A DNA stretch of 64,000 nucleotides, from positions 67,646,158-67,710,157 of the forward strand of contig OV277864.1 of assembly GCA_922989275.2 (NCBI GenBank), read 5' to 3'. The stretch is from Gari tellinella. Its lineage: Eukaryota > Mollusca > Bivalvia > Cardiida > Psammobiidae. The notes beneath the pieces were generated by a model. That model did not search any database. It saw only the letters and a program-made list of their open reading frames with translations, and had not been told where the DNA came from. Positions 3,971-62,029 of the stretch are shown one piece after another. The translations under genes and the position numbers were made by a program. How positions within the stretch are numbered: the first letter of the stretch is position 1; each line of letters starts with the position of its first letter.

Positions 3971-4181
3971 TAAAGTCAAAACTTGATACTTCAAACTCAC
4001 GTTAGTTCGAACATACCCATGTATCAAAGTTAAAACATGTGGCTAATAATTAATAGCCACGTTTTAACTTTGAAATATGGGTATGTCGACTTATTTAGCG
4101 AGATTGACTAATCGAAATTCAACTTATGAAATACTGGTACGATTTATTTAAGTTTGTTCCAAGTATCGAGTTTCGACTGCA
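3971..4181. mobile_element. Family F MITE, intact
   Basis: The inner hairpin contains AAAGTTAAAACATGTGGC and its complement near 4060-4090. The outer arms contain ACTTGATACTTC and GAAGTATCGAGT-like complements and end TTTCGACTG. It is the reference copy for the repeat interrupted by the palindromic element. Confidence 0.75.
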
Positions 4182-4420
4182 TGTATTTACACTTTTAAAT
4201 TATTCCTCCACTGAAGAAAATAGTTCCAAGTGATACAGTCATGAATATGTATTATAAGAAATATTTTCTATATTCTAGTACTGTAGATCGTAGCTTAATT
4301 TAACATGCAGGCTGAAAGTAAAGCAGAATGCACCGTAAGGGGCATTCTGCTTTACTTTCAACCTGCTTTAAGTTGTCGACTATTTTCAACTAGAAACAGG
4401 CTATTGGGTAAAGGGTTCAA
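4182..4420. mobile_element. Family A MITE, left end eroded
   Basis: It contains TTATTCCTCCACTGAAGAAA and the core hairpin, and ends CTATTGGGTAAAGGGTT. Confidence 0.7.
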
Positions 4421-4498: not shown

Positions 4499-4633
4499 AA
4501 GTGTATTATCGTGCAATAGAACACGGATAGTAGTTGAGATGCGTAGCAATTATATCACAAGGCTGTTACTAGGCTGAGTGATTTATTTACCAGCATCTCA
4601 ACGACTACCAGTGTGCTATTGCACGACAATACA
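4499..4633. repeat. Inverted repeat, 43-bp arms
   Basis: The arms 4499-4541 and 4591-4633 are near-complementary (AGTGTATTATCGTGCAATAG against its partner) around a 49-bp loop. It belongs to none of the families above. Confidence 0.7.
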
Positions 4634-5014
4634 CTGGTATGCATTTATTATTTCGATTCTTACACATCAATTTAACTACAATTTGCACAGACACAATGGC
4701 GCTCCATTTCAAGGTGCACAAATTATCGAAGCCATACAACTGAATGTAGGGGAGTGCCCAAGGTGTGTTAGAATTAGAGATATATGTATATGGTTAGAAC
4801 AGTCTTTTTTTCGAATGTGACTTAGTAACTCAAGAGGACATGTTCCTTGAAGATAATTCTAAGTTTGAGTTACAATGCAGGGTTTGGTGGAGCCATAAGG
4901 AGTCTAGTATTGAAATATATAGTCGAAACACGATATTAGTTCGAACTTACCCATTTTTCAAAGTTAAAACTTGCCTTAGCCACATTTTAACTTTGAAATA
5001 CAGGTATGTTCACC

Positions 5015-5254
5015 TTAACCCTTTACCCTATATCCTGTTTCAAAATTTGAAGAAAGGTGACCGCTCAGAGCAGGTTGAAAGTAAAGCAGAATGTGCCTTA
5101 AGGCACATTCTGCTTTACTTTCAGCCTGCTTTAGGCTACCATCTGCTAGGATATAGAACATATTTCTATTGGTACATGTTTATGTCTGTCTACATTGGAA
5201 CTATTTTCTTCAATTTAGGAATAAATTAAATGCGTTAAAAGGGGTAAAGGGTTA
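5015..5254. mobile_element. Family A MITE inside family F
   Basis: It starts TTAACCCTTTACCC, carries the perfect core hairpin (AGCAGGTTGAAAGTAAAGC and its complement) and ends GGGTAAAGGGTTA. It lies just left of the palindromic element. Confidence 0.85.
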
Positions 5255-5264
5255 TTAATCGAGA

Positions 5265-5270
5265 TCGACT
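5265..5270. repeat. Target-site duplication TCGACT, left
   Basis: The 6-bp TCGACT directly abuts the 5'-AG end of the palindromic element and is identical to the copy at 14860-14865. The interrupted family F repeat has a single such site in its other copies (for example near 4102-4115). Confidence 0.85.
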
Positions 5271-7511
5271 AGTAGTAATGCTGGTTCCATAGCGTCAATT
5301 AGCCCCGAGGGCGTGATGATGTTGACAGGCTGACCTCGTGGGCCTTGACAGGCTGACCTCGTAATGACCGTATACTGCGGTAAGCGAGTAACTCGGCGTA
5401 TCAGCTGAACTCGTTTTCTTTCATAGAACGTCCGGTAGAAATACCAAAGACACCGTAAATTAAGCAGGTGACACTTTACTCCGAAACGTTTAAAATTAAG
5501 ATATATAGCCCGAGAGAGATAAAAACACAGTTTAACGAATAACCAATAGTATGCAACGTCAAAAAGTCTCGTATGCATCAAGACGGCGGCAAAGACCTAA
5601 AAGGCTCGACCTCACTATTCGTTCGTAATGACAAAACTGGATACTTTTTGCGCTGCATATCTGCCTATCTTATAAAACGCCTCAATTGAAAAATACTTCA
5701 TTTGCAATAGCCTATAAAGAACTATTCTAAAAATAATGCGTTCATTCGCGCTATGTTTTGGGGACACATTTGCAGAACGTTATAAGGCGGCGCTTAACGT
5801 AAACACCCGAGCTACAAAAAAGCGCTGAATTGGGTCTTTTCCTAATACGATCGCGTTGAATTAACCCTTTATACGTGTGAAACGAAAATTAGTCTTACGC
5901 AGGTAACTCGGCGTTTCACCTGAACACGTTTTCTTCATAGGACGTCCGGTAGAAATACCAAAGACACCGTAAATTAAGCAGGTGACACTTTACTCCGAAA
6001 CGTTTAAAATTAAGATATATAGCCCGAGAGAGATAAACACACAGTTTAACGAATAACCAATAGTTTGCAACGTCCTACTACCGAATACGTGCACGTACAG
6101 TTTATAAAAGTTTAATATAGCCATCACACTGCGAATTCAATTCTGAAAACGAAACCTTTATAAACTGACCACGACGTTTGTTCAGAACATGACCTGAGTA
6201 TAGCGCGCTCATTAATTTGCACGAACCCTCGTTGCAGAAACCACCTAAGTGCCTAAACACCGTGAAATGTAAAACATACGCCTGTCGCTAAACCGGCTTC
6301 ATTCGTGGTACATAGATAGCACGCTTTGGCGTTAGTTAAACTCATTTACCTGTAGGCATTCGTTTTGACCGTACGGAACACAGAAAATGTATCTTGCCTA
6401 CGAAATGTGACTATTTATTAGATGAGCAGATATGCAGCGTACAAAGTGTCGATTAAGGACGTCCAGTAGAAATACCAAAGACACCGTAGATTAAGCAGGT
6501 GACACTTTCGTCACTCTGAAACGTTTGGTATAAAATTAAGATATATAGCCCAAGAGAATTGAAGTTAATATTGCGGAATGTATGCAATCATGATGTATAG
6601 GCAGCTGATTACTTTAGTCCTTATTTAAGCTACACCTTTATCTCGTAAATCAATTACATGTATGCCTAAACACTAAATAAAATGTAAACTCATTATAATA
6701 CATTGAAAAGTCTCCCTATTTGGTCAAAGTTTTATTTTATTTGGACAAAGCGGCATCAATTGCATATATCACGGAGTAAATACGCGTCTTTTGACATTAC
6801 TATATATTGCCTTTTTGACGAGTTTACACTTTGACGAATCGTCCGTAAGTCGGGGTTAAAAGTTCTCTAGAGTTTATGTTATATTGTTTATATGTCCCGA
6901 CAGTAAATAAAGCGTTTCTACTGTATTGTAATGAGGTATAGTTGTCACATTTACGATACTATTATATAAAAGCAATTTAAAAAACAACAATTATAGTAGT
7001 CCTAATTGGTGCGCGATATTACCAGTTTGACGAAACCACCATATGTTAGGGTACAGTACACTATAAGATTGTCGAATTGGCTCCAGGGGGCAGTACACAA
7101 TGATAAATTTTTCGATTTCCTTAAATTTAGGTGCGGAAAGAATTCTATTGTACTCCTTAAACATTAATTTAAATGTATTATAGACTACTGCTGCTTCTGC
7201 TACTACTACTTTTGCTATTTTATCGTTATAATTTCATACAATGACAACTACTACTACTACTGTTTCTACTACTACTACAACAACTTCTCCTATTGCTAGC
7301 TTTATTATCATTATGACACTCTCAGTTTCACCTCTAGCGAGGTTACTCACGTTCTGAGCCAACGAGAAGGCGGTGTCTTATTTCAGAACATCCCCACACA
7401 GTCTATTTACAGTTATGTACACTATTTTGTCCAATATTTCTCGCATTATGTTCTCTTAATTCTCACGCTCTGGCGCTAACTTTTCGTTTAGGTTCAGCTT
7501 CGTTATTCGCG
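5271..7511. repeat. Left terminal non-coding zone with three subterminal repeats
   Basis: This zone of about 2.2 kb carries no credible gene. A unit of about 172 bp occurs at 5388-5560 and 5903-6074, and a partial third (about 108 bp) at 6456-6563; all share GTCCGGTAGAAATACC or a near variant and a GATATATAGCCC stretch. An inverted pair related to GCTGCATATCTGC lies near 5650 and 6430. An ACTACT-rich microsatellite sits at 7183-7290. Repeated subterminal blocks may bind a replication or packaging factor (inference). Confidence 0.7.
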
Positions 7512-7883
7512 TTAGTAGTTGTACCAGTTCAAAGGGTCACTTCCCTTCCTACCCTGCTCGTGAATAGCAGTTCTGTCCTCCCTATGGTTCTTAGCATTTT
7601 GTCTGATTTCCGACTTTACCATTTCGATCGCTTGAGCCACCGGAGTGATTAACTTGACTGTAGGCCCGCGTTTCAATTTCGCTTCCGCTTCTTCCAATTT
7701 CCGTTCCGTCTCTTTCAATTTTTCTTCCATGTCGCGTAGCTTTTTAGACATATACCCTGGTCCATGTTTCTTCGCTTCCATCCGGTCTAATATCTTTTGA
7801 TAATAACGTTCGGCGTCTTCGGGGGTATCCAGAAAAGGTACCCATTTGAGCAGGTCGTTATCGAAAACTTCTATGGATCCCAT
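7512..7883 (-). CDS. Small coiled-coil protein, left arm
   Basis: The protein has 123 residues from the ATG at 7883. A longer reading would need a TTG start, which is unlikely in an animal. The N-terminus (GSIEVFDNDLLKWVPFLDT) has a W-containing conserved look; residues around 40-75 are a charged coiled coil (repeated KLKE/KLEE heptads). The basic tail ends in DPLNWYNY. It starts within the end of the capsid-like gene, so the two are probably co-expressed. Similar small coiled-coil proteins sit next to the capsid-like gene in related elements (recollection, not checked); function unknown. Confidence 0.6.
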   Translation of the reverse strand: MGSIEVFDNDLLKWVPFLDTPEDAERYYQKILDRMEAKKHGPGYMSKKLRDMEEKLKETERKLEEAEAKLKRGPTVKLITPVAQAIEMVKSEIRQNAKNHREDRTAIHEQGRKGSDPLNWYNY

Positions 7884-8347
7884 GTCTTTTTCAAATGCAA
7901 CACGCAATGTAAGTGGTTGGTGTTAAATATCACGGGCTTCAGATTTTCGTCAAGCAACTGCAACTTCAACGTATGTAACCGAGTCGTTTTCAAAGGTACA
8001 TAGAAAGGGTTGATGTAAATTTCAGTTTTGAGTTTCTTGTAACTATGCACTTCGATATTTCTCAGCACCGGAAGTAGGGTGTCTCTGACGCAGGACTCTT
8101 GTACGAGGTCACAACACAAGTACAGTCGGGAACTTCTCGGTGTAAAATCGCAATCGAGGGTTATGTCAATGAGCGCACAGGACCATTGACCTTCCAAACT
8201 ATAGGGTTTAGGCAGTTGGATCCAGCACTCTGCGGGGTTGTTTTTCTTATAGAGAACGAGAGAATCTCGACTAGTCACAAATAAATGCAAGTCTTTCATT
8301 TTTATAGACGCGGTAACGCTTCTCCGAGTCGGGTTAACTCTTCTCAT
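7871..8347 (-). CDS. Minor-capsid (penton-type) like protein, left arm
   Basis: The protein has 158 residues and no signal peptide or membrane segment. The middle holds a WSCALIDITLDCDF stretch. It is followed by RLYLCCDLVQ, a D-x(4)-LLR-like segment (DTLLPVLRNI), FYVPL, and a closing LHCVLHLKK. I recognise this order (GQW-x-ALxxI, LYVYCDIV, VGD-LLR, YVPL, LHFR) from a large family encoded by Polinton/adintovirus-like elements in cnidarians and molluscs, thought to be a jelly-roll minor capsid or penton-type protein. The capsid role is inference. A second ATG at codon 17 is an alternative start. Its last 13 bases overlap the start of the next gene. Confidence 0.65.
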   Translation of the reverse strand: MRRVNPTRRSVTASIKMKDLHLFVTSRDSLVLYKKNNPAECWIQLPKPYSLEGQWSCALIDITLDCDFTPRSSRLYLCCDLVQESCVRDTLLPVLRNIEVHSYKKLKTEIYINPFYVPLKTTRLHTLKLQLLDENLKPVIFNTNHLHCVLHLKKTWDP

Positions 8348-8427
8348 GTGGTCATGATTTCATCTAGAATCGCTCGGTATTAATAATGCGGGTACTACAG
8401 AATGGTGACGTTTGAAGAGAGTTATTC

Positions 8428-9751
8428 TTATACTGTGTCTTCGGTCGATGATTTATCTTCATTATCGGTCATCGCATCCTCTTCTGGAATGGCCTGATCA
8501 GGCCATACCTCATAAAACAAATCTTTTCTCAGTTTAACCGCTTGACGTATAGACTCTTCGACATTCATTGAATGCTGTCGCCTGAGCATTTTGGCCGACT
8601 CTAAAACATGTCGTTGTATCGGATCGCCTCTTAACTCGTGGAAATCGATAAGAAATCTGGTGTACATATTTCTCAATGCCTTTCTTAGCGAGGGAAGCTC
8701 ATCATTGACAGCTCTGGGGAACGCTTTATCTAGTGCGTAACCTCGCTTTACATAGTCGTTCGCTGTAGCTTTTAATTGATCAGCGTGATATTCTCTCAGT
8801 GGAATTTTAAACCTGTTGTTCCATATGTCAGGACGTGAACGCTCCTCGCTCAGCTCTACCTGTTTACGATGACCAGGTGGTCCCGTATCGTCACTCCAAA
8901 CATCATTGGAGTCGTGTTGACTGTCATTGTCTTCCTCACTTTCTATTTCAACTCCATATGGCAACGCATTATAGGAGTCAGTCGCTTCTTCGTATTCATC
9001 GTCCAATCGCTTTCTCTTGTTTACTCCAAAAATGTTATCTCGTAAACGGTCTGGTTCCGGGGTATTCGGTTTCAAGTCTATTACCAAGTAGCCGTGAGGG
9101 TAGGACGTCGTCTGTTCAAATCGCTTCATGAAAACTGCATGGGATGAAGGGTAAATCCGTCGTGCCAAAGTGGCTACTTGTTGTCTGTCGATGGGATTAT
9201 TAAATAATACCAAATACTGCGTGTTTAAGGCGATGTCCCTGCAAGCTTTGCCTTGAGGAAATAAATTTTTGAGTCAGATATACGATCGAGATATTTCTGT
9301 GGTGGCTGCCTTTAGTAAAGAGATCTGCTATTCTCTGGTCACACTTAGCTTCAGTCATTAAGTCGTCAAACACAAGAAGGGTCCTTTTACTTCCATCGAT
9401 ATACTGGGAATCGTCCAGATGCTCTGGGATACCTCGTATAAATTCCATCGATGGTTTGATACGCTTCAGTGTGTCATAAAGAGGTTGCCATTGTCCGTAG
9501 CACCAGATAATTCTCTGAGGGGAAGGCTGAATGAGGGAGGAATTCAACAGTTGTCTAGTCCAATGAGTTTTCCCGCTACCGCTGGGTCCCGACACTACCA
9601 TAGAAAAGGGATGTTGAAAGGTTATTTGTTTAGACGTTGGTGGTAGAGCTAGTGTATGATCGATTGTATCGGTTCCGTGGACATTACGTTGATGTCTCAC
9701 CATGTTGTCATATCTAGAGAAAGTAACGGAACATTGACTGCAGCGCTTCAT
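8428..9751 (-). CDS. Packaging ATPase (A32/FtsK-like) with N-terminal C2H2 finger; frameshifted; left arm
   Basis: This is a putative genome-packaging NTPase of Polintons/adintoviruses. The first part (9751 to 9200, 183 residues) starts with a C2H2 finger (C4, C7, H20, H25), then Walker A GPSGSGKT at 55-62, Walker B LLVFDD around 125-130, and the HHRNISIVYLTQ sensor region near 150-161. The expected downstream family motif, including LVLFNNPIDRQQ and LARRIYP, lies in the next frame (to 8428). That frame has no ATG before it, only a TTG. One extra base in a T5 run (9266-9270 on the plus strand) accounts for the shift. The remainder holds a conserved-looking PHGYLVIDLK segment, an acidic linker and a helical C-terminal extension of about 130 residues that I do not recognise. 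Either the gene is inactive, or it uses frameshifting or slippage, or the run length is a sequencing error. It is identical to the right-arm copy. Confidence 0.85.
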
Positions 9752-10378
9752 GATTACAAATACTAAGCTGTAAAGCCATTCTTATGTGCTTTGCAAGTGT
9801 ATTCTTCCTCCTCCTCCCTCCTTACCCTCCTCCTCCCCTCCTCCTCCCTCCTCCTCCAACCTCAATCCATCTTATGTTGTTAAAACAGATGCTGGTTGTG
9901 GAGGTGGTGGTGTTGTCCTGTGTACATCTTGTGGGTTTGTTTTTTTTTTTGCTAAAAGAAAGATTCGAGTCAAGCTTAAAACATGCTGTTTACAATAGCA
10001 ACATGGCCTCTGTCGGAGAAATATGGCTCCACACGATGAACATAGAGTATGTCCGCATGCTTAAACCCTGCATGCGGACATACTCTATGTTCATCGTGTG
10101 GAGCCATATTTCTCCGACAGAGGCCATGTTGCTATTGTAAACAGCATGTTTTAAGTTTGACTCGAATCTTTCTTTTAGCAAAAAAAAAAACAAACCCACA
10201 AGATGTACACAGGACAACACCACCACCTCCACAACCAGCATCTGTTTTAACAACATAAGATGGATTGAGGTTGGAGGAGGAGGGAGGAGGAGGGGAGGAG
10301 GAGGGTAAGGAGGGAGGAGGAGGAAGAATACACTTGCAAAGCACATAAGAATGGCTTTACAGCTTAGTATTTGTAATC
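9752..10378. promoter_or_regulatory. Central divergent intergenic region of the palindrome
   Basis: This 627-bp mirror-symmetric stretch lies between the two divergent ATPase starts, so any promoter here must act both ways. It contains a long C/T-rich tract at 9806-9858 (purine-rich at 10272-10324), an 11-base T/A run on each side, and the symmetry centre TTAAACCCT flanked by GCATGC. Low-complexity open frames crossing it (9784-10140 and mirror) are not credible genes. No clear TATA box was identified. Confidence 0.6.
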
Positions 10379-11702
10379 ATGAAGCGCTGCAGTCAATGTT
10401 CCGTTACTTTCTCTAGATATGACAACATGGTGAGACATCAACGTAATGTCCACGGAACCGATACAATCGATCATACACTAGCTCTACCACCAACGTCTAA
10501 ACAAATAACCTTTCAACATCCCTTTTCTATGGTAGTGTCGGGACCCAGCGGTAGCGGGAAAACTCATTGGACTAGACAACTGTTGAATTCCTCCCTCATT
10601 CAGCCTTCCCCTCAGAGAATTATCTGGTGCTACGGACAATGGCAACCTCTTTATGACACACTGAAGCGTATCAAACCATCGATGGAATTTATACGAGGTA
10701 TCCCAGAGCATCTGGACGATTCCCAGTATATCGATGGAAGTAAAAGGACCCTTCTTGTGTTTGACGACTTAATGACTGAAGCTAAGTGTGACCAGAGAAT
10801 AGCAGATCTCTTTACTAAAGGCAGCCACCACAGAAATATCTCGATCGTATATCTGACTCAAAAATTTATTTCCTCAAGGCAAAGCTTGCAGGGACATCGC
10901 CTTAAACACGCAGTATTTGGTATTATTTAATAATCCCATCGACAGACAACAAGTAGCCACTTTGGCACGACGGATTTACCCTTCATCCCATGCAGTTTTC
11001 ATGAAGCGATTTGAACAGACGACGTCCTACCCTCACGGCTACTTGGTAATAGACTTGAAACCGAATACCCCGGAACCAGACCGTTTACGAGATAACATTT
11101 TTGGAGTAAACAAGAGAAAGCGATTGGACGATGAATACGAAGAAGCGACTGACTCCTATAATGCGTTGCCATATGGAGTTGAAATAGAAAGTGAGGAAGA
11201 CAATGACAGTCAACACGACTCCAATGATGTTTGGAGTGACGATACGGGACCACCTGGTCATCGTAAACAGGTAGAGCTGAGCGAGGAGCGTTCACGTCCT
11301 GACATATGGAACAACAGGTTTAAAATTCCACTGAGAGAATATCACGCTGATCAATTAAAAGCTACAGCGAACGACTATGTAAAGCGAGGTTACGCACTAG
11401 ATAAAGCGTTCCCCAGAGCTGTCAATGATGAGCTTCCCTCGCTAAGAAAGGCATTGAGAAATATGTACACCAGATTTCTTATCGATTTCCACGAGTTAAG
11501 AGGCGATCCGATACAACGACATGTTTTAGAGTCGGCCAAAATGCTCAGGCGACAGCATTCAATGAATGTCGAAGAGTCTATACGTCAAGCGGTTAAACTG
11601 AGAAAAGATTTGTTTTATGAGGTATGGCCTGATCAGGCCATTCCAGAAGAGGATGCGATGACCGATAATGAAGATAAATCATCGACCGAAGACACAGTAT
11701 AA
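10379..11702 (+). CDS. Packaging ATPase (A32/FtsK-like) with N-terminal C2H2 finger; frameshifted; right arm
   Basis: This is the mirror copy of the left-arm gene, protein-identical in both frames. The first frame runs 10379-10930; the second, carrying the C-terminal half of the ATPase fold and the extension, is open from 10857 to 11702. The two frames can exchange only between the TGA at 10854 and the TAA at 10928, and family homology places the exchange in the A5 run at 10860-10864. A short upstream ATG at 10351 opens a 22-codon frame that overlaps the main start. The next gene starts 80 bp downstream, on the same strand. The ATPase assignment is secure from the motifs; the role in packaging is inferred from the family. 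Confidence 0.85.
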
Positions 11703-11782
11703 GAATAACTCTCTTCAAACGTCACCATTCTGTAGTACCCGCATTATTAATACCGAGCGATTCTAGATGAAATCATGACCAC

Positions 11783-12259
11783 ATGAGAAGAGTTAACCCG
11801 ACTCGGAGAAGCGTTACCGCGTCTATAAAAATGAAAGACTTGCATTTATTTGTGACTAGTCGAGATTCTCTCGTTCTCTATAAGAAAAACAACCCCGCAG
11901 AGTGCTGGATCCAACTGCCTAAACCCTATAGTTTGGAAGGTCAATGGTCCTGTGCGCTCATTGACATAACCCTCGATTGCGATTTTACACCGAGAAGTTC
12001 CCGACTGTACTTGTGTTGTGACCTCGTACAAGAGTCCTGCGTCAGAGACACCCTACTTCCGGTGCTGAGAAATATCGAAGTGCATAGTTACAAGAAACTC
12101 AAAACTGAAATTTACATCAACCCTTTCTATGTACCTTTGAAAACGACTCGGTTACATACGTTGAAGTTGCAGTTGCTTGACGAAAATCTGAAGCCCGTGA
12201 TATTTAACACCAACCACTTACATTGCGTGTTGCATTTGAAAAAGACATGGGATCCATAG
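11783..12259 (+). CDS. Minor-capsid (penton-type) like protein, right arm
   Basis: This is an identical copy of the 158-residue left-arm protein, with ATG at 11783 and an alternative ATG at 11831. It lies 80 bp after the ATPase gene and overlaps the following gene through ATGGGATCCATAG. Many related family members are longer at the N-terminus, so it may be a shortened form; the C-terminal beta-rich half is the best preserved. Penton or minor-capsid assignment rests on motif order only. Confidence 0.65.
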   Translation: MRRVNPTRRSVTASIKMKDLHLFVTSRDSLVLYKKNNPAECWIQLPKPYSLEGQWSCALIDITLDCDFTPRSSRLYLCCDLVQESCVRDTLLPVLRNIEVHSYKKLKTEIYINPFYVPLKTTRLHTLKLQLLDENLKPVIFNTNHLHCVLHLKKTWDP

Positions 12260-12618
12260 AAGTTTTCGATAACGACCTGCTCAAATGGGTACCTTTTCTG
12301 GATACCCCCGAAGACGCCGAACGTTATTATCAAAAGATATTAGACCGGATGGAAGCGAAGAAACATGGACCAGGGTATATGTCTAAAAAGCTACGCGACA
12401 TGGAAGAAAAATTGAAAGAGACGGAACGGAAATTGGAAGAAGCGGAAGCGAAATTGAAACGCGGGCCTACAGTCAAGTTAATCACTCCGGTGGCTCAAGC
12501 GATCGAAATGGTAAAGTCGGAAATCAGACAAAATGCTAAGAACCATAGGGAGGACAGAACTGCTATTCACGAGCAGGGTAGGAAGGGAAGTGACCCTTTG
12601 AACTGGTACAACTACTAA
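12247..12618 (+). CDS. Small coiled-coil protein, right arm
   Basis: This is the mirror copy of the left-arm protein, from the ATG at 12247. It is the last gene of the right arm; beyond it about 2.2 kb without convincing genes leads to the element end. The amino-acid sequence is identical to the left copy. It may be a structural or scaffold component, but nothing in the sequence fixes the role. Confidence 0.6.
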   Translation: MGSIEVFDNDLLKWVPFLDTPEDAERYYQKILDRMEAKKHGPGYMSKKLRDMEEKLKETERKLEEAEAKLKRGPTVKLITPVAQAIEMVKSEIRQNAKNHREDRTAIHEQGRKGSDPLNWYNY

Positions 12619-14859
12619 CGCGAATAACGAAGCTGAACCTAAACGAAAAGTTAGCGCCAGAGCGTGAGAATTAAGAGAACATAATGCGAGAAATATTGGA
12701 CAAAATAGTGTACATAACTGTAAATAGACTGTGTGGGGATGTTCTGAAATAAGACACCGCCTTCTCGTTGGCTCAGAACGTGAGTAACCTCGCTAGAGGT
12801 GAAACTGAGAGTGTCATAATGATAATAAAGCTAGCAATAGGAGAAGTTGTTGTAGTAGTAGTAGAAACAGTAGTAGTAGTAGTTGTCATTGTATGAAATT
12901 ATAACGATAAAATAGCAAAAGTAGTAGTAGCAGAAGCAGCAGTAGTCTATAATACATTTAAATTAATGTTTAAGGAGTACGATAGAATTCTTTCCGCACC
13001 TAAATTTAAGGAAATCGAAAAATTTATCATTGTGTACTGCCCCCTGGAGCCAATTCGACAATCTTATAGTGTACTGTACCCTAACATATGGTGGTTTCGT
13101 CAAACTGGTAATATCGCGCACCAATTAGGACTACTATAATTGTTGTTTTTTAAATTGCTTTTATATAATAGTATCGTAAATGTGACAACTATACCTCATT
13201 ACAATACAGTAGAAACGCTTTATTTACTGTCGGGACATATAAACAATATAACATAAACTCTAGAGAACTTTTAACCCCGACTTACGGACGATTCGTCAAA
13301 GTGTAAACTCGTCAAAAAGGCAATATATAGTAATGTCAAAAGACGCGTATTTACTCCGTGATATATGCAATTGATGCCGCTTTGTCCAAATAAAATAAAA
13401 CTTTGACCAAATAGGGAGACTTTTCAATGTATTATAATGAGTTTACATTTTATTTAGTGTTTAGGCATACATGTAATTGATTTACGAGATAAAGGTGTAG
13501 CTTAAATAAGGACTAAAGTAATCAGCTGCCTATACATCATGATTGCATACATTCCGCAATATTAACTTCAATTCTCTTGGGCTATATATCTTAATTTTAT
13601 ACCAAACGTTTCAGAGTGACGAAAGTGTCACCTGCTTAATCTACGGTGTCTTTGGTATTTCTACTGGACGTCCTTAATCGACACTTTGTACGCTGCATAT
13701 CTGCTCATCTAATAAATAGTCACATTTCGTAGGCAAGATACATTTTCTGTGTTCCGTACGGTCAAAACGAATGCCTACAGGTAAATGAGTTTAACTAACG
13801 CCAAAGCGTGCTATCTATGTACCACGAATGAAGCCGGTTTAGCGACAGGCGTATGTTTTACATTTCACGGTGTTTAGGCACTTAGGTGGTTTCTGCAACG
13901 AGGGTTCGTGCAAATTAATGAGCGCGCTATACTCAGGTCATGTTCTGAACAAACGTCGTGGTCAGTTTATAAAGGTTTCGTTTTCAGAATTGAATTCGCA
14001 GTGTGATGGCTATATTAAACTTTTATAAACTGTACGTGCACGTATTCGGTAGTAGGACGTTGCAAACTATTGGTTATTCGTTAAACTGTGTGTTTATCTC
14101 TCTCGGGCTATATATCTTAATTTTAAACGTTTCGGAGTAAAGTGTCACCTGCTTAATTTACGGTGTCTTTGGTATTTCTACCGGACGTCCTATGAAGAAA
14201 ACGTGTTCAGGTGAAACGCCGAGTTACCTGCGTAAGACTAATTTTCGTTTCACACGTATAAAGGGTTAATTCAACGCGATCGTATTAGGAAAAGACCCAA
14301 TTCAGCGCTTTTTTGTAGCTCGGGTGTTTACGTTAAGCGCCGCCTTATAACGTTCTGCAAATGTGTCCCCAAAACATAGCGCGAATGAACGCATTATTTT
14401 TAGAATAGTTCTTTATAGGCTATTGCAAATGAAGTATTTTTCAATTGAGGCGTTTTATAAGATAGGCAGATATGCAGCGCAAAAAGTATCCAGTTTTGTC
14501 ATTACGAACGAATAGTGAGGTCGAGCCTTTTAGGTCTTTGCCGCCGTCTTGATGCATACGAGACTTTTTGACGTTGCATACTATTGGTTATTCGTTAAAC
14601 TGTGTTTTTATCTCTCTCGGGCTATATATCTTAATTTTAAACGTTTCGGAGTAAAGTGTCACCTGCTTAATTTACGGTGTCTTTGGTATTTCTACCGGAC
14701 GTTCTATGAAAGAAAACGAGTTCAGCTGATACGCCGAGTTACTCGCTTACCGCAGTATACGGTCATTACGAGGTCAGCCTGTCAAGGCCCACGAGGTCAG
14801 CCTGTCAACATCATCACGCCCTCGGGGCTAATTGACGCTATGGAACCAGCATTACTACT
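12619..14859. repeat. Right terminal non-coding zone with three subterminal repeats
   Basis: This is the mirror of the left terminal zone: units at 14570-14742, 14056-14227 and partial 13567-13674, plus a GTAGTA-rich microsatellite at 12840-12947. The open frame starting at 14549 only reads through the first repeat unit and out into flanking DNA, so I do not call it a gene. Confidence 0.7.
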
Positions 14860-14865
14860 TCGACT
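14860..14865. repeat. Target-site duplication TCGACT, right
   Basis: This is the right copy of the 6-bp duplication. The interrupted family F repeat resumes directly after it, which shows that the flanks are real genomic sequence and not a mirrored read. Confidence 0.85.
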
Positions 14866-44902: not shown

Positions 44903-46118
44903 CAAGAGCTGTCGGAGAACAGCAAAGCTCGCCTAATTAAACCTTTCTTAAATAGGTAACTATCAAAAGAAAAGTGTATCAGTACATTGATATTCAAGCC
45001 ACAGGGAACCTCCATTCAAAATATCAACTTCCTAATGCAAATATGTCATGTAGTATAAGACTTAGTGCATTCCAACACTTACTCCTTAACTAACTTTGAA
45101 ATTTCAGCCCCAAAACTCTAAGTCCACAAAAGGTGTAATTTTGACTAAATTTAAACTTTTTAAAAAAAAATAACTACGCAACTTCAATGTTCAACCCAAG
45201 GGCACCTCCATTCCAAATATCAGCTTCCTAATACAAATATTTCATGTAGTATTAGAACTCTTACCCCAAAACTTTAACCATGAGAAATCAGCCGAAAAAC
45301 CTAAGTCCTAAACAGGTGAAATTCTGACTAAATTTAAACTTTTTTTTAAATTTTAACTACGTAACATCAATGTTCAACCCACAGAGCACCTTGATTCCCA
45401 ATATCAGCTTCTTAATACAATTATTTCAAGTAGTATTAGAGCATCACAACACTTACCCCAAAACTTTAACAATGAGAAATCAGCCGAAAAACCTAAGTCC
45501 ACAAAAGGTGAAATTTTGACTAAATTTTAACTTTTTTTTAAATTCAAACTACGAAACATCAATGTTCAACCCACAGGGCACCTCCAATCCAAATATCAGC
45601 TTTCTAATACAAATATTTCATGTAGTATAAGTGCATAATAACACTTACCCCAAAACTTTAACCATGAGAAATCAGCCGAAAAACCTAAGTCAACAAAAGG
45701 TGAAATTCTGACTAAATTTAAACTTTTTTTTTAATTCTAACTAAACAACATCAATGTTCAACCCACAGGGCACCTCCAATCCAAATATCAGCTTCCTAAT
45801 ACAAATATTTCATGTAGTATTAGTGCATAACAACACTTACCCCAAAACTTTAACCATGAGAAATCAGCCGAAAAACCTAAGTCCACAAAAGGTAAAATTT
45901 TGACTAAATTTTAACTTTTTTTTTAATTCTAACTACACAACATCAATGTCCAACCCACAGGGCACCTCCAATCCAAATATCAGCTTCCTAATGCAAATAT
46001 TTCATGATGTATTAGTGCATAACAACACTTACCCCGAAACTTTAACCATGAAAAACCAACGCCGACGCCGACGTGATTCCATAAGCCCCCACATTCTCCG
46101 AATAGGCGAGCTAATAAA
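44903..46118. mobile_element. 1.2-kb element with six internal tandem repeats
   Basis: The short inverted ends are TCGGAGAA...AGCTCGCCTA (about 44912-44934) and TTCTCCGAATAGGCGAGCT (46094-46112). Inside are about six units of roughly 190 bp (anchors at about 45003, 45199, 45384, 45576, 45768, 45960), each with GGCACCTCC and AATCAGCCGAAAAACC. A CGCCGACGCCGACG motif precedes the right end. Confidence 0.8.
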
Positions 46119-61360: not shown

Positions 61361-61421
61361 GCAAATACCTAGATGACACTAGATTAAACCTACAAGGGAG
61401 AGGGTCAATAGGAATACTTAC

Positions 61422-61672
61422 ACCTCTAATATCCGGTCTCCCTTCCGAATTCCTGCTCTTTGGGCTGCCCCTCCTTCCAAAACAGCACTGACATGTTGCA
61501 ACGGTGCATACAGTACGCCATTGATAGATTTCAGCACCCCGCCTTCACTAACCTGACCCCTGACGTTAAATCCAAATCCTGTTTCCGATTTTGTGATTGT
61601 CACTACGCGAGGACCTATGGAATTGTCTTGAATTTGCTCTGGAGGGGAGGGACTTTCATCACTCTCCGCCAT
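61422..61672 (-). CDS. SNX27: SNX27 exon 1 (start codon and most of the PDZ domain)
   Basis: SNX27 is an endosomal adaptor: its PDZ domain binds C-terminal PDZ ligands of membrane cargo and works with retromer and the WASH complex to return cargo to the plasma membrane. This exon gives 83 codons plus two bases. A poorly conserved N-terminus (residues 1-19) is followed by the PDZ domain, beginning [11 protein letters not shown], with the carboxylate-binding loop GFGF at 32-35 and the signature [20 protein letters not shown], close to vertebrate SNX27. The ATG has A at -3 and G at +4. The exon stops at a consensus donor GTAAGT (61421 to 61416) after GAG-GT, so valine 84 is split and completed by exon 2. 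The preceding sequence to the right is 5' UTR or promoter. Orthology is recognised by eye and is very secure. Confidence 0.96.
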
Positions 61673-62029
61673 ACTGGGTCATGTGACCAAACTAATTCCC
61701 GGTTGGAAGTGACTTTACGAAGCACAGAATTTAACGAAAATCTAGTTAATCAGATGTATTTGATAATTACACGGTTCTGAACTTTTAAATGAAGATATTT
61801 TCCCTGTTTATAATTATCGCGTAAGCCATTTTGCTTTAAACAGCTGTTACGGAAATAGATTAATTGGGTTAAAAGAGAACTCTTGGTGCATCCTGAAAGC
61901 TGTAAGAACAAGTTGTCTCCCTTACTATACAGCAGTTTAGCCTAAATCCATTTTGTTTGGCAGTTCACTAACTATACATTGAACTGAAGAAGATATTTTA
62001 CCATTCTTGGCACTCTCAACCCTAGCAAT
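61673..62029 (-). promoter_or_regulatory. SNX27: SNX27 5' UTR / proximal promoter region
   Basis: This is the sequence immediately upstream of the SNX27 start codon. It lacks the recognised repeats that fill the rest of the window, which fits a 5' UTR and core promoter. I see no convincing TATA box and cannot place the transcription start. Confidence 0.5.

What the first reader, a model, noticed from the sequence alone, without database searches (positions are those of the whole stretch)
5271..14859. A 9.6-kb palindromic, virus-like element integrated in an SNX27 intron
Seen: two 4,790-bp reverse-complement arms around a 9-bp centre, each with the same outward gene set. Known: Polintons/adintoviruses have inverted termini of hundreds of bases and unique interiors with polymerase, integrase and capsid genes. 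A fully self-complementary member would be a different life form of the element. Inference: it arose as a snap-back genome during protein-primed replication, as for symmetric defective adenovirus genomes, and was then integrated.
Basis: partly seen in the sequence, partly recalled or inferred. Interest (0 to 1): 0.95.

Follow-up and report, generated by a model that had tools for sequence, protein, structure and literature searches.

The report
Palindromic virus-like jumping DNA family
A 9.6-kb stretch of animal DNA that reads as its own mirror image is one of at least 17 such mirror-image copies in this genome, and their mutations suggest that each copy's two halves are made from one another by folding back, which would be an unusual way of life for virus-like DNA.

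Summary
The palindrome is real: arms 5271-10060 and 10070-14859, 4,790 nt, 2 mismatches, 9-nt centre, 6-bp target duplication. It is no one-off: its centre has 17 intact palindromic matches in the genome, and 14 of 15 of these with located ends have a 6-bp duplication. The same ends occur on non-palindromic 'AB' elements with 1.3-3.5 kb inverted repeats and on a 17-kb element with family-B DNA polymerase and chromodomain integrase: probably helper-dependent Polinton/adintovirus derivatives. In ten full copies, arms of one copy differ by 0-11 substitutions, arms of different copies by 10-95; 120 of 141 variable columns and 132 of 133 gaps are mirrored. Stems end at one fixed point while loops vary (10 kinds in 15 read); AB cousins read on into unique DNA there. 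Best explanation: a fold-back made the palindrome, which now propagates through a hairpin in which one arm templates the other. Arm-to-arm gene conversion on the chromosome is the main rival. A one-off defective genome is not supported; the SNX27-intron placement is not established.

The parts
5265..5270 (.). target-site duplication TCGACT, left
14860..14865 (.). target-site duplication TCGACT, right
5271..10060 (.). left arm, 4,790 nt, reverse complement of the right arm with 2 mismatches
10061..10069 (.). centre TTAAACCCT, hypervariable among copies; predicted hairpin loop
10070..14859 (.). right arm
5271..7182 (.). terminal about 1.9 kb of the left arm, shared with the PolB-side end of the 17-kb element and with both ends of AB elements
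12948..14859 (.). terminal about 1.9 kb of the right arm, same as the left
9200..9781 (-). zinc-finger packaging-type ATPase, first part (Pox_A32 2.4e-8, Adeno_IVa2 2.9e-6, weak C2H2); frame broken in this copy, in both arms
8428..9273 (-). same ATPase, second part, in another frame in this copy
7871..8359 (-). p162, 162-aa conserved protein of unassigned function (minor-capsid candidate by my recall only)
7512..7922 (-). p136, coiled-coil-like 136-aa protein of unassigned function
10349..10930 (+). mirror copy of the ATPase, first part
10857..11702 (+). mirror copy of the ATPase, second part
11771..12259 (+). mirror copy of p162
12208..12618 (+). mirror copy of p136
5415..5560 (.). 146-nt direct repeat, first copy (partner 5929-6074; mirrored in the right arm); copies C11 and C13 have about 500 bp lost or gained in this part of both arms
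4091..4182 (.). empty-site paralogue: aligns across the joined flanks without the element

Best explanation
The window holds one copy of a mobile, fully palindromic, helper-dependent derivative of a Polinton/adintovirus-type element. SHOWN: palindromic copies integrate as units with 6-bp target duplications; no polymerase or integrase is recognisable in the window copy; a 17-kb element with the same terminal sequence encodes PolB, an integrase with chromodomain and a packaging-type ATPase; AB relatives run past the turning point into unique DNA; within a copy the arms are nearly identical while copies differ, and substitutions, indels and 500-bp changes are mirrored; stems end at one fixed point but loops differ. 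INFERRED: (1) the palindrome arose when a strand of an AB-like genome folded back near ...GCATG/GGTTTAAA... and copied its own half. (2) It now replicates with the helper's PolB: the displaced strand folds into a 4.8-kb hairpin whose blunt end looks like a normal terminus; fold-back synthesis, or mismatch repair in the hairpin, makes the arms identical in each round, and the turn-around rewrites the loop. (3) The helper's integrase inserts the 9.6-kb duplex, whose two ends are both PolB-side ends. Its own ATPase, p162 and p136 may serve packaging.
For: 17 of 31 places matched by the centre query (31 of 31 candidates scored) are intact palindromes. 6-bp duplications in 23 of 25 located end pairs, palindromic or not (window; 16 of 18; 5 of 5 located out of 7 tried; the 17-kb element). 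Arms within a copy: 0, 0, 1, 1, 1, 1, 2, 3, 4, 11 substitutions in ten full copies; left arms of different copies 10-95 substitutions and 2-13 gap openings in 45 comparisons. 120 of 141 variable columns mirrored in every copy; 132 of 133 gap runs mirrored; 18 of 21 discordances private to one arm; both arms sisters in 10 of 10 copies, support 0.91-1.0 in nine, 0.76 on a near-zero branch for C6. C11 lacks and C13 has an extra 500 bp or so in both arms. Loops: 10 kinds in 15 centres read, mean pairwise difference 0.38 against 0.020 for stems; one copy (L008) holds the loop plus its own complement, as a second fold-back 2 nt further on would leave. AB elements continue into unique DNA at that point and fall on one side of a single split from the palindromes (support 0.99). 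Two more palindromic elements, C3a and C9c, with other centres, made from the other (NADAR-side) half; C3a's centre is intact at one place only. Long inverted repeats of AB elements are mostly more alike within a copy (1, 2, 4 differences in 1,290 nt) than between copies (4-12).
Against: No free hairpin, virion or replication intermediate was looked for or seen. Protein priming was not tested. Arm-to-arm gene conversion on the chromosome would also give mirrored variants. Not everything is mirrored: C13 has 11 unmirrored substitutions, C16b 13 in 1,056 nt, and C3a 17 plus a stretch of about 690 nt in one arm only. AB elements are not the direct parents: about 230 nt of the inner arm have no match in them and the last 200 nt are 81-82% identical, while a 2.3-kb piece of that half is 98% identical; the tree is unrooted, so that AB came first is not shown. 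In that shorter piece five close copies (C6, C2b, C7b, C7a, C1) do not resolve as arm pairs. In AB element C12 the two ends differ as much (4) as its right end does from the 17-kb element (4). The proposed fold-back stem in today's AB elements is weak (GCAT...ATGC, 4 bp, by eye). PolB elements at 96% or more were found at 4 places (40 of 47 candidates scored) and whether they are active was not tested. Hexon and protease of the 17-kb element were not confirmed. pN/pS of p136 against AB elements is about 1 or undefined, on very few changes.
Confidence: 0.6

Rival explanations
1. The palindrome was amplified by ordinary duplex transposition, and gene conversion between the two arms on the chromosome keeps them alike afterwards, as in large chromosomal palindromes.
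For: It would mirror substitutions and indels just as seen; the arms lie 9 nt apart.
Against: It does not explain loops that differ about twenty times more than stems while the stem end stays fixed, nor the loop-plus-complement centre of L008. C13, C16b and C3a keep unmirrored differences, so conversion, if any, is incomplete. Separated inverted repeats of AB elements show a similar pattern.
Confidence: 0.22
2. Each palindrome is an independent snap-back product of an AB-type or 17-kb element and a dead end.
For: AB elements exist and continue past the turning point; C3a looks like a single such event; there are 10 kinds of loop.
Against: All 15 centres read end at the same stem base, and seven of 17 share one loop; the palindromes fall on the other side of one split from the three AB elements tested.
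Confidence: 0.07
3. Two half-genomes were joined head to head by end joining, the variable spacer being junction filler.
For: Spacers of 8-20 nt at one fixed stem end.
Against: Most spacers resemble one another and the GGTTTAAA that AB elements carry at that place (by eye), so they are not random filler; joining two different molecules would not make arms identical within each copy.
Confidence: 0.07
4. Assembly artefact (hairpin reads or false duplication).
For: Perfect palindromes are a known failure of long-read data (recalled).
Against: Distinct flanks and 6-bp duplications on both sides of copies in many places; two palindromes of another half with other spacers.
Confidence: 0.02

Closest known systems
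Polintons/Mavericks and adintoviruses
   Same: The 17-kb relative with the same ends has PolB (PF03175, 6.5e-50), rve integrase (1.3e-13) with C-terminal chromodomain, A32-type ATPase, inverted ends, 6-bp target duplication. PMC11071296 (passages) defines adintoviruses by PolB with an OTU-like N-terminus, a recognisable hexon and an rve integrase with C-terminal chromodomain; PMC12220804 (passages) gives inverted repeats of hundreds to thousands of bases and 5-6 bp duplications.
   Different: The window element has no recognisable PolB or integrase and no unique interior; both ends are the PolB-side end; it is all inverted repeat.
Hairpin and palindromic-dimer derivatives of yeast linear plasmid pGKL1 (recalled, not read)
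   Same: Protein-primed linear DNA giving a perfect hairpin and its inverted dimer.
   Different: As I recall, those are cytoplasmic plasmid derivatives; here chromosomal copies have multiplied by integration. My search listed no paper whose title or abstract start is about it.
Symmetric defective adenovirus genomes
   Same: End duplication and snap-back in protein-primed replication.
   Different: As I recall, defective and transient; no integrated, propagating family.
Foldback-like elements such as Galileo (PMC3573991, passages)
   Same: Inverted repeats that vary in length, non-autonomous copies with expanded repeats, repeats inside them.
   Different: P-superfamily transposase; inverted repeats of 18 to about 1,260 bp there, against 4.8-kb arms with viral-type genes here.
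Hairpin-capped inverted dimers of the ODIRA model (PMC10766183, passages)
   Same: Template switching or hairpins at short inverted repeats yield inverted dimers that can reinsert.
   Different: Host chromosomal segments in yeast; no recurring mobile family in the passages seen.

Membership tests
Polinton/adintovirus (window element itself) | family-B DNA polymerase | tested here: not met
   None seen among the ORFs of 80 aa or more in the arms; six of them, one arm, were scanned with Pfam; it is on the 17-kb relative
Polinton/adintovirus (window element itself) | rve integrase with chromodomain | tested here: not met
   present on the 17-kb relative
Polinton/adintovirus (window element itself) | A32-type packaging ATPase | tested here: met
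   Pox_A32 2.4e-8; frame split in this copy, one ORF in both arms of the other nine full palindromes
Polinton/adintovirus (window element itself) | inverted ends and 5-6 bp target duplication | tested here: met
Polinton/adintovirus (17-kb relative) | PolB and rve integrase with C-terminal chromodomain | tested here: met
Polinton/adintovirus (17-kb relative) | major capsid (hexon) and protease | tested here: inconclusive
   451-aa and 173-aa ORFs in place; no Pfam or PHROG match for either; no PDB match for the 451-aa ORF
Polinton/adintovirus (17-kb relative) | OTU-like N-terminus of PolB | tested here: inconclusive
   the 617-aa N-terminal ORF of a sister copy (L046) gave no Pfam family
Polinton/adintovirus | protein-primed replication | not testable with these tools
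   inferred from the PolB class only
Non-autonomous derivative of that kind | same termini as a PolB/integrase element in the same genome | tested here: met
Foldback/Galileo-like | P-superfamily transposase and its ends | not tested
   no relation sought; the ends match the PolB element
MITE | short, non-coding | tested here: not met
   9.6 kb with three genes per arm

The most novel reading that the evidence does not exclude
A class of animal mobile DNA whose genome is functionally a 4.8-kb hairpin: an integrating, helper-dependent satellite of an adintovirus-like element that keeps two identical gene sets by copying one arm from the other in each replication round, rewrites its loop as it goes, brings its own packaging-type ATPase, and now outnumbers (17 palindromic centres to 4 places at 96% or more) its closest PolB-bearing relatives; the same process makes palindromes from the other, NADAR-side half.
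Probability: 0.4. Interest if true: 0.93.

Novelty: new variant of a known kind. Interest (0 to 1): 0.82.

Why it matters
Mirror-image genomes of protein-primed replicons are, as far as I recall, treated as short-lived accidents. Here one seems to have become a mobile family, with non-palindromic cousins and a PolB/integrase element in the same genome, so the steps from short inverted ends to a complete palindrome can be studied side by side. Mirrored mutations inside each copy are a sequence record of how the DNA was copied, which makes the replication route of Polintons/adintoviruses in animals testable from genomes. It also warns that integrated 'defective' viral DNA may be a propagating parasite of a virus-like element.

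Tried and rejected
Rejected: assembly artefact (distinct flanks, target duplications, 17 places); one-off defective genome (seven of 17 copies share a loop); orientation of the centre as evidence of hairpin resolution (in a symmetric element an asymmetric centre is trivially seen either way); MITE.

Led nowhere: IMG/VR scans with p162, the ATPase and their alignments found no relatives; p162 and the 451-aa ORF have no PDB match and no PHROG match; Rfam none in the window. Structure prediction of p162 was never accepted. NADAR and CARD-RING copy counts were not obtained. Other genome-search runs unanswered because the machine was busy: 10, 12, 25, 27, 29, 31, 33, 35, 37, 40, 43, 46, 50, 53, 57, 61, 66, 68, 71, 74, 77, 80, 83, 85, 87, 89, 91, 94, 100. 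One search ended in a script error after 12 of 18 rows; one search covered the rest except C16b, which gave no row. The adintovirus paper PMC8502044 is not held. Rows left out: the arm statistics use ten full palindromes; left out are C16a, C3c, C2a, C16b (near-palindromic or rearranged), C3a and C9c (other half), the three AB elements, and the seven palindromes of which only ends or centres were fetched. One search leaves out C16b, C3a, C9c and one arm of C2a (28 of the 29 pieces looked for were used). In one search the p162 of AB element C17 was missed by my motif; its ORF is.
Full report
OBSERVATION. The arms 5271-10060 and 10070-14859 are reverse complements over 4,790 nt with two mismatches, around TTAAACCCT; the next longest inverted pair found in the window has 252 nt. 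The insertion has a perfect 6-bp duplication, and the joined flanks match another stretch of the window, 4091-4182, across the junction (92 nt, 84%). Each arm carries, transcribed from the centre outward, a zinc-finger ATPase (Pox_A32 2.4e-8; Adeno_IVa2 2.9e-6), p162 and p136. In this copy the ATPase frame is broken in both arms; it is one ORF of 450 aa in both arms of the other nine full palindromes.

A FAMILY, NOT AN ACCIDENT. The window lies in a 1.6-Gb genome of 80 contigs. An ATPase piece gave 40 scored matches of 71 candidates, of which 34 fall into 17 close inverted pairs. A 160-nt centre query gave 31 candidates, all scored: 17 places match over the full length (intact palindromic centre), 14 on one side only; these 17 are not quite the same copies as the 17 pairs. 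A terminal piece gave 40 scored of 91 candidates: 18 pairs, the window's among them, 5.9-11.9 kb apart, and 4 single ends. I fetched the 17 other pairs, and C7b known, as halves, and about 5.5-6 kb at each single end. Of these 18 elements nine are full palindromes like the window, four are near-palindromic or rearranged (C16a, C16b, C3c, C2a), three are AB elements (C12, C17, C3b), and two (C3a, C9c) are palindromic but made of another half. A 6-bp duplication is present in 16 of these 18 (not in C9b and C3c), in the window, in five of five further palindromes whose ends I could place (seven tried), and at the 17-kb element: 23 of 25 located pairs.

THE RELATIVES. AB elements share both ends with the window, have inverted repeats of 1,326 (C3b), 2,586 (C12) and 3,514 bp (C17) with 2, 6 and 3 mismatches, and a unique interior: on one side the window's ATPase, p162 and p136, on the other a CARD-RING protein (CARD 1.8e-14; C12; a like ORF in C17) or a NADAR protein (3.1e-46; C3b). 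A 17,036-bp element on C17 has the same end on one side, an inverted repeat of only about 100 bp, a 6-bp duplication, and encodes PolB (6.5e-50), an A32-type ATPase of another kind, rve integrase with chromodomain, a TATA-binding-protein homologue (9.8e-28), and p162 and p136 homologues. The ends of AB elements and of palindromes resemble its PolB-side end on both sides. PolB copies at 96% or more were found at four places, others at 71-90% (40 of 47 candidates scored). The ATPase family occurs in many contigs of other assemblies (309 proteins at E <= 0.001, 120 listed), but the IMG/VR scans found none.

HOW IT COPIES ITSELF. Ten full palindromes gave these arm-to-arm substitution counts: window 2, C7a 1, C11 0, C9b 0 (one 8-nt gap), C6 1, C13 11, C5 3, C1 1, C2b 4, C7b 1; left arms of different copies differ by 10-95 substitutions and 2-13 gap openings (45 comparisons). 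In the 20-arm alignment 141 ungapped columns vary: 120 are mirrored in every copy and 21 hold one discordant copy each (18 private to one arm, 3 shared); 132 of 133 gap runs are mirrored; both arms are sisters in 10 of 10 copies, weakly so for C6. C11 and C13 have a loss and a gain of about 500 bp in both arms, where the window has the 146-nt direct repeats. So before, or since, each insertion one arm was copied from the other. Against this, C13, C16b (13 differences in 1,056 nt) and C3a (17 substitutions and about 690 nt in one arm only) keep unmirrored changes; on the reading here these arose after insertion.

THE CENTRE. Stems of the 15 centres read end at the same GCATGC; left and right 60-nt stems are identical in 14 and differ once in one. 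Loops come in 10 kinds of 8-20 nt; mean pairwise difference is 0.38 for loops and 0.020 for stems. Two further centres match the window's 160 nt at 100%, so seven of 17 share its loop. AB elements at that point read GTCCGCATGGGTTTAAAGC... and go on into unique DNA; most loops resemble GGTTTAAA, by eye. L008 has AGGGTTTAA-GC-TTAAACCCT as its centre: the old loop, two more bases, then its complement, as a second fold-back would leave. C3a has another 8-nt centre, found intact once (7 of 7 candidates scored), and C9c an 84-nt one, both in NADAR-side sequence.

ORDER OF EVENTS. In a 2.3-kb piece of the shared half the three AB elements form one side of a split from all palindromic copies used (support 0.99), next to C13 and C5; the tree is unrooted and does not say which form came first. 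Between arm positions 4353 and 4587 the palindromes have no counterpart in AB elements, and from 4587 to 4789 they are 81-82% identical, against 98% in the 2.3-kb piece. So AB elements are cousins of the palindromes' source, not the source.

READING. Shown: a mobile palindromic family with the ends of a PolB/integrase element, arms alike within copies, variable loops at a fixed stem end, AB relatives that run past the turning point. Inferred: fold-back origin, propagation through a hairpin with the helper's enzymes, arm identity by self-templating or repair in the hairpin. The strongest rival is gene conversion between arms on the chromosome; it explains the arms but not the loops. Both can be told apart by orthologous insertions. 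Genes seem to have been kept working: p162 and p136 ORFs are open in both arms of all ten copies, the ATPase in nine; pN/pS is 0 to 0.55 for p162 and 0.11-0.80 for the ATPase in the pairs tried, 0.47 for p136 against the 17-kb element, and for p136 within the family scattered from 0 to undefined on at most five changes per pair.

PRINT. Searches that looked for palindromic Polintons or adintoviruses, or for hairpin forms of their kin, were (56, 62 and 116 listed 15 of 39, 15 of 22 and 25 of 34 papers); no title or abstract start that I saw describes one. In PMC11071308, PMC6431247, PMC11071296 and PMC12220804 words beginning 'palindrom' occur 0 times (passages only). The library lacks most subscription papers, so this is not proof of absence. 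Hairpin plasmids of pGKL1 and symmetric adenovirus genomes are recalled, not read.

Noticed in passing
L050:1112-1636 (G000:C17, 17-kb element): A TATA-binding-protein homologue (PF00352, 9.8e-28) lies between the integrase and p162 genes of the PolB-bearing element; one paper search listed a single paper, a review of vertebrate transposable elements, with no sign of TBP in Polintons in title or abstract start.
   Followed up: partly
L012:923-1510, L034:881-1435, L037:2633-3160: AB elements carry a CARD-RING or a NADAR gene on the half opposite the ATPase; in C3b the NADAR gene sits where PolB begins in the 17-kb element, behind the same upstream region.
   Followed up: partly
L049:4866-5228, L050:1624-2022, L012:420-956: A small protein family of unknown function seems to appear twice in the 17-kb element and once in AB element C12, by eye.
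   Followed up: no
window 44993-46055: Tandem array of a 192-nt unit, 5.6 copies, with strong GC skew (-0.41).
   Followed up: no
window 5014-5246 and many other places: A dispersed repeat family fills the host DNA (27 copies of a 133-nt unit at 60% or more); the element sits next to one copy.
   Followed up: no
window 61421-61678 (-): SNX27 PDZ exon (PDB sorting nexin-27, 2.3e-30).
   Followed up: partly
L021/L022 (C16b), L039/L040 (C3c), L019/L020 (C16a): Palindromes with one-sided loss or rearrangement at or near the centre.
   Followed up: partly
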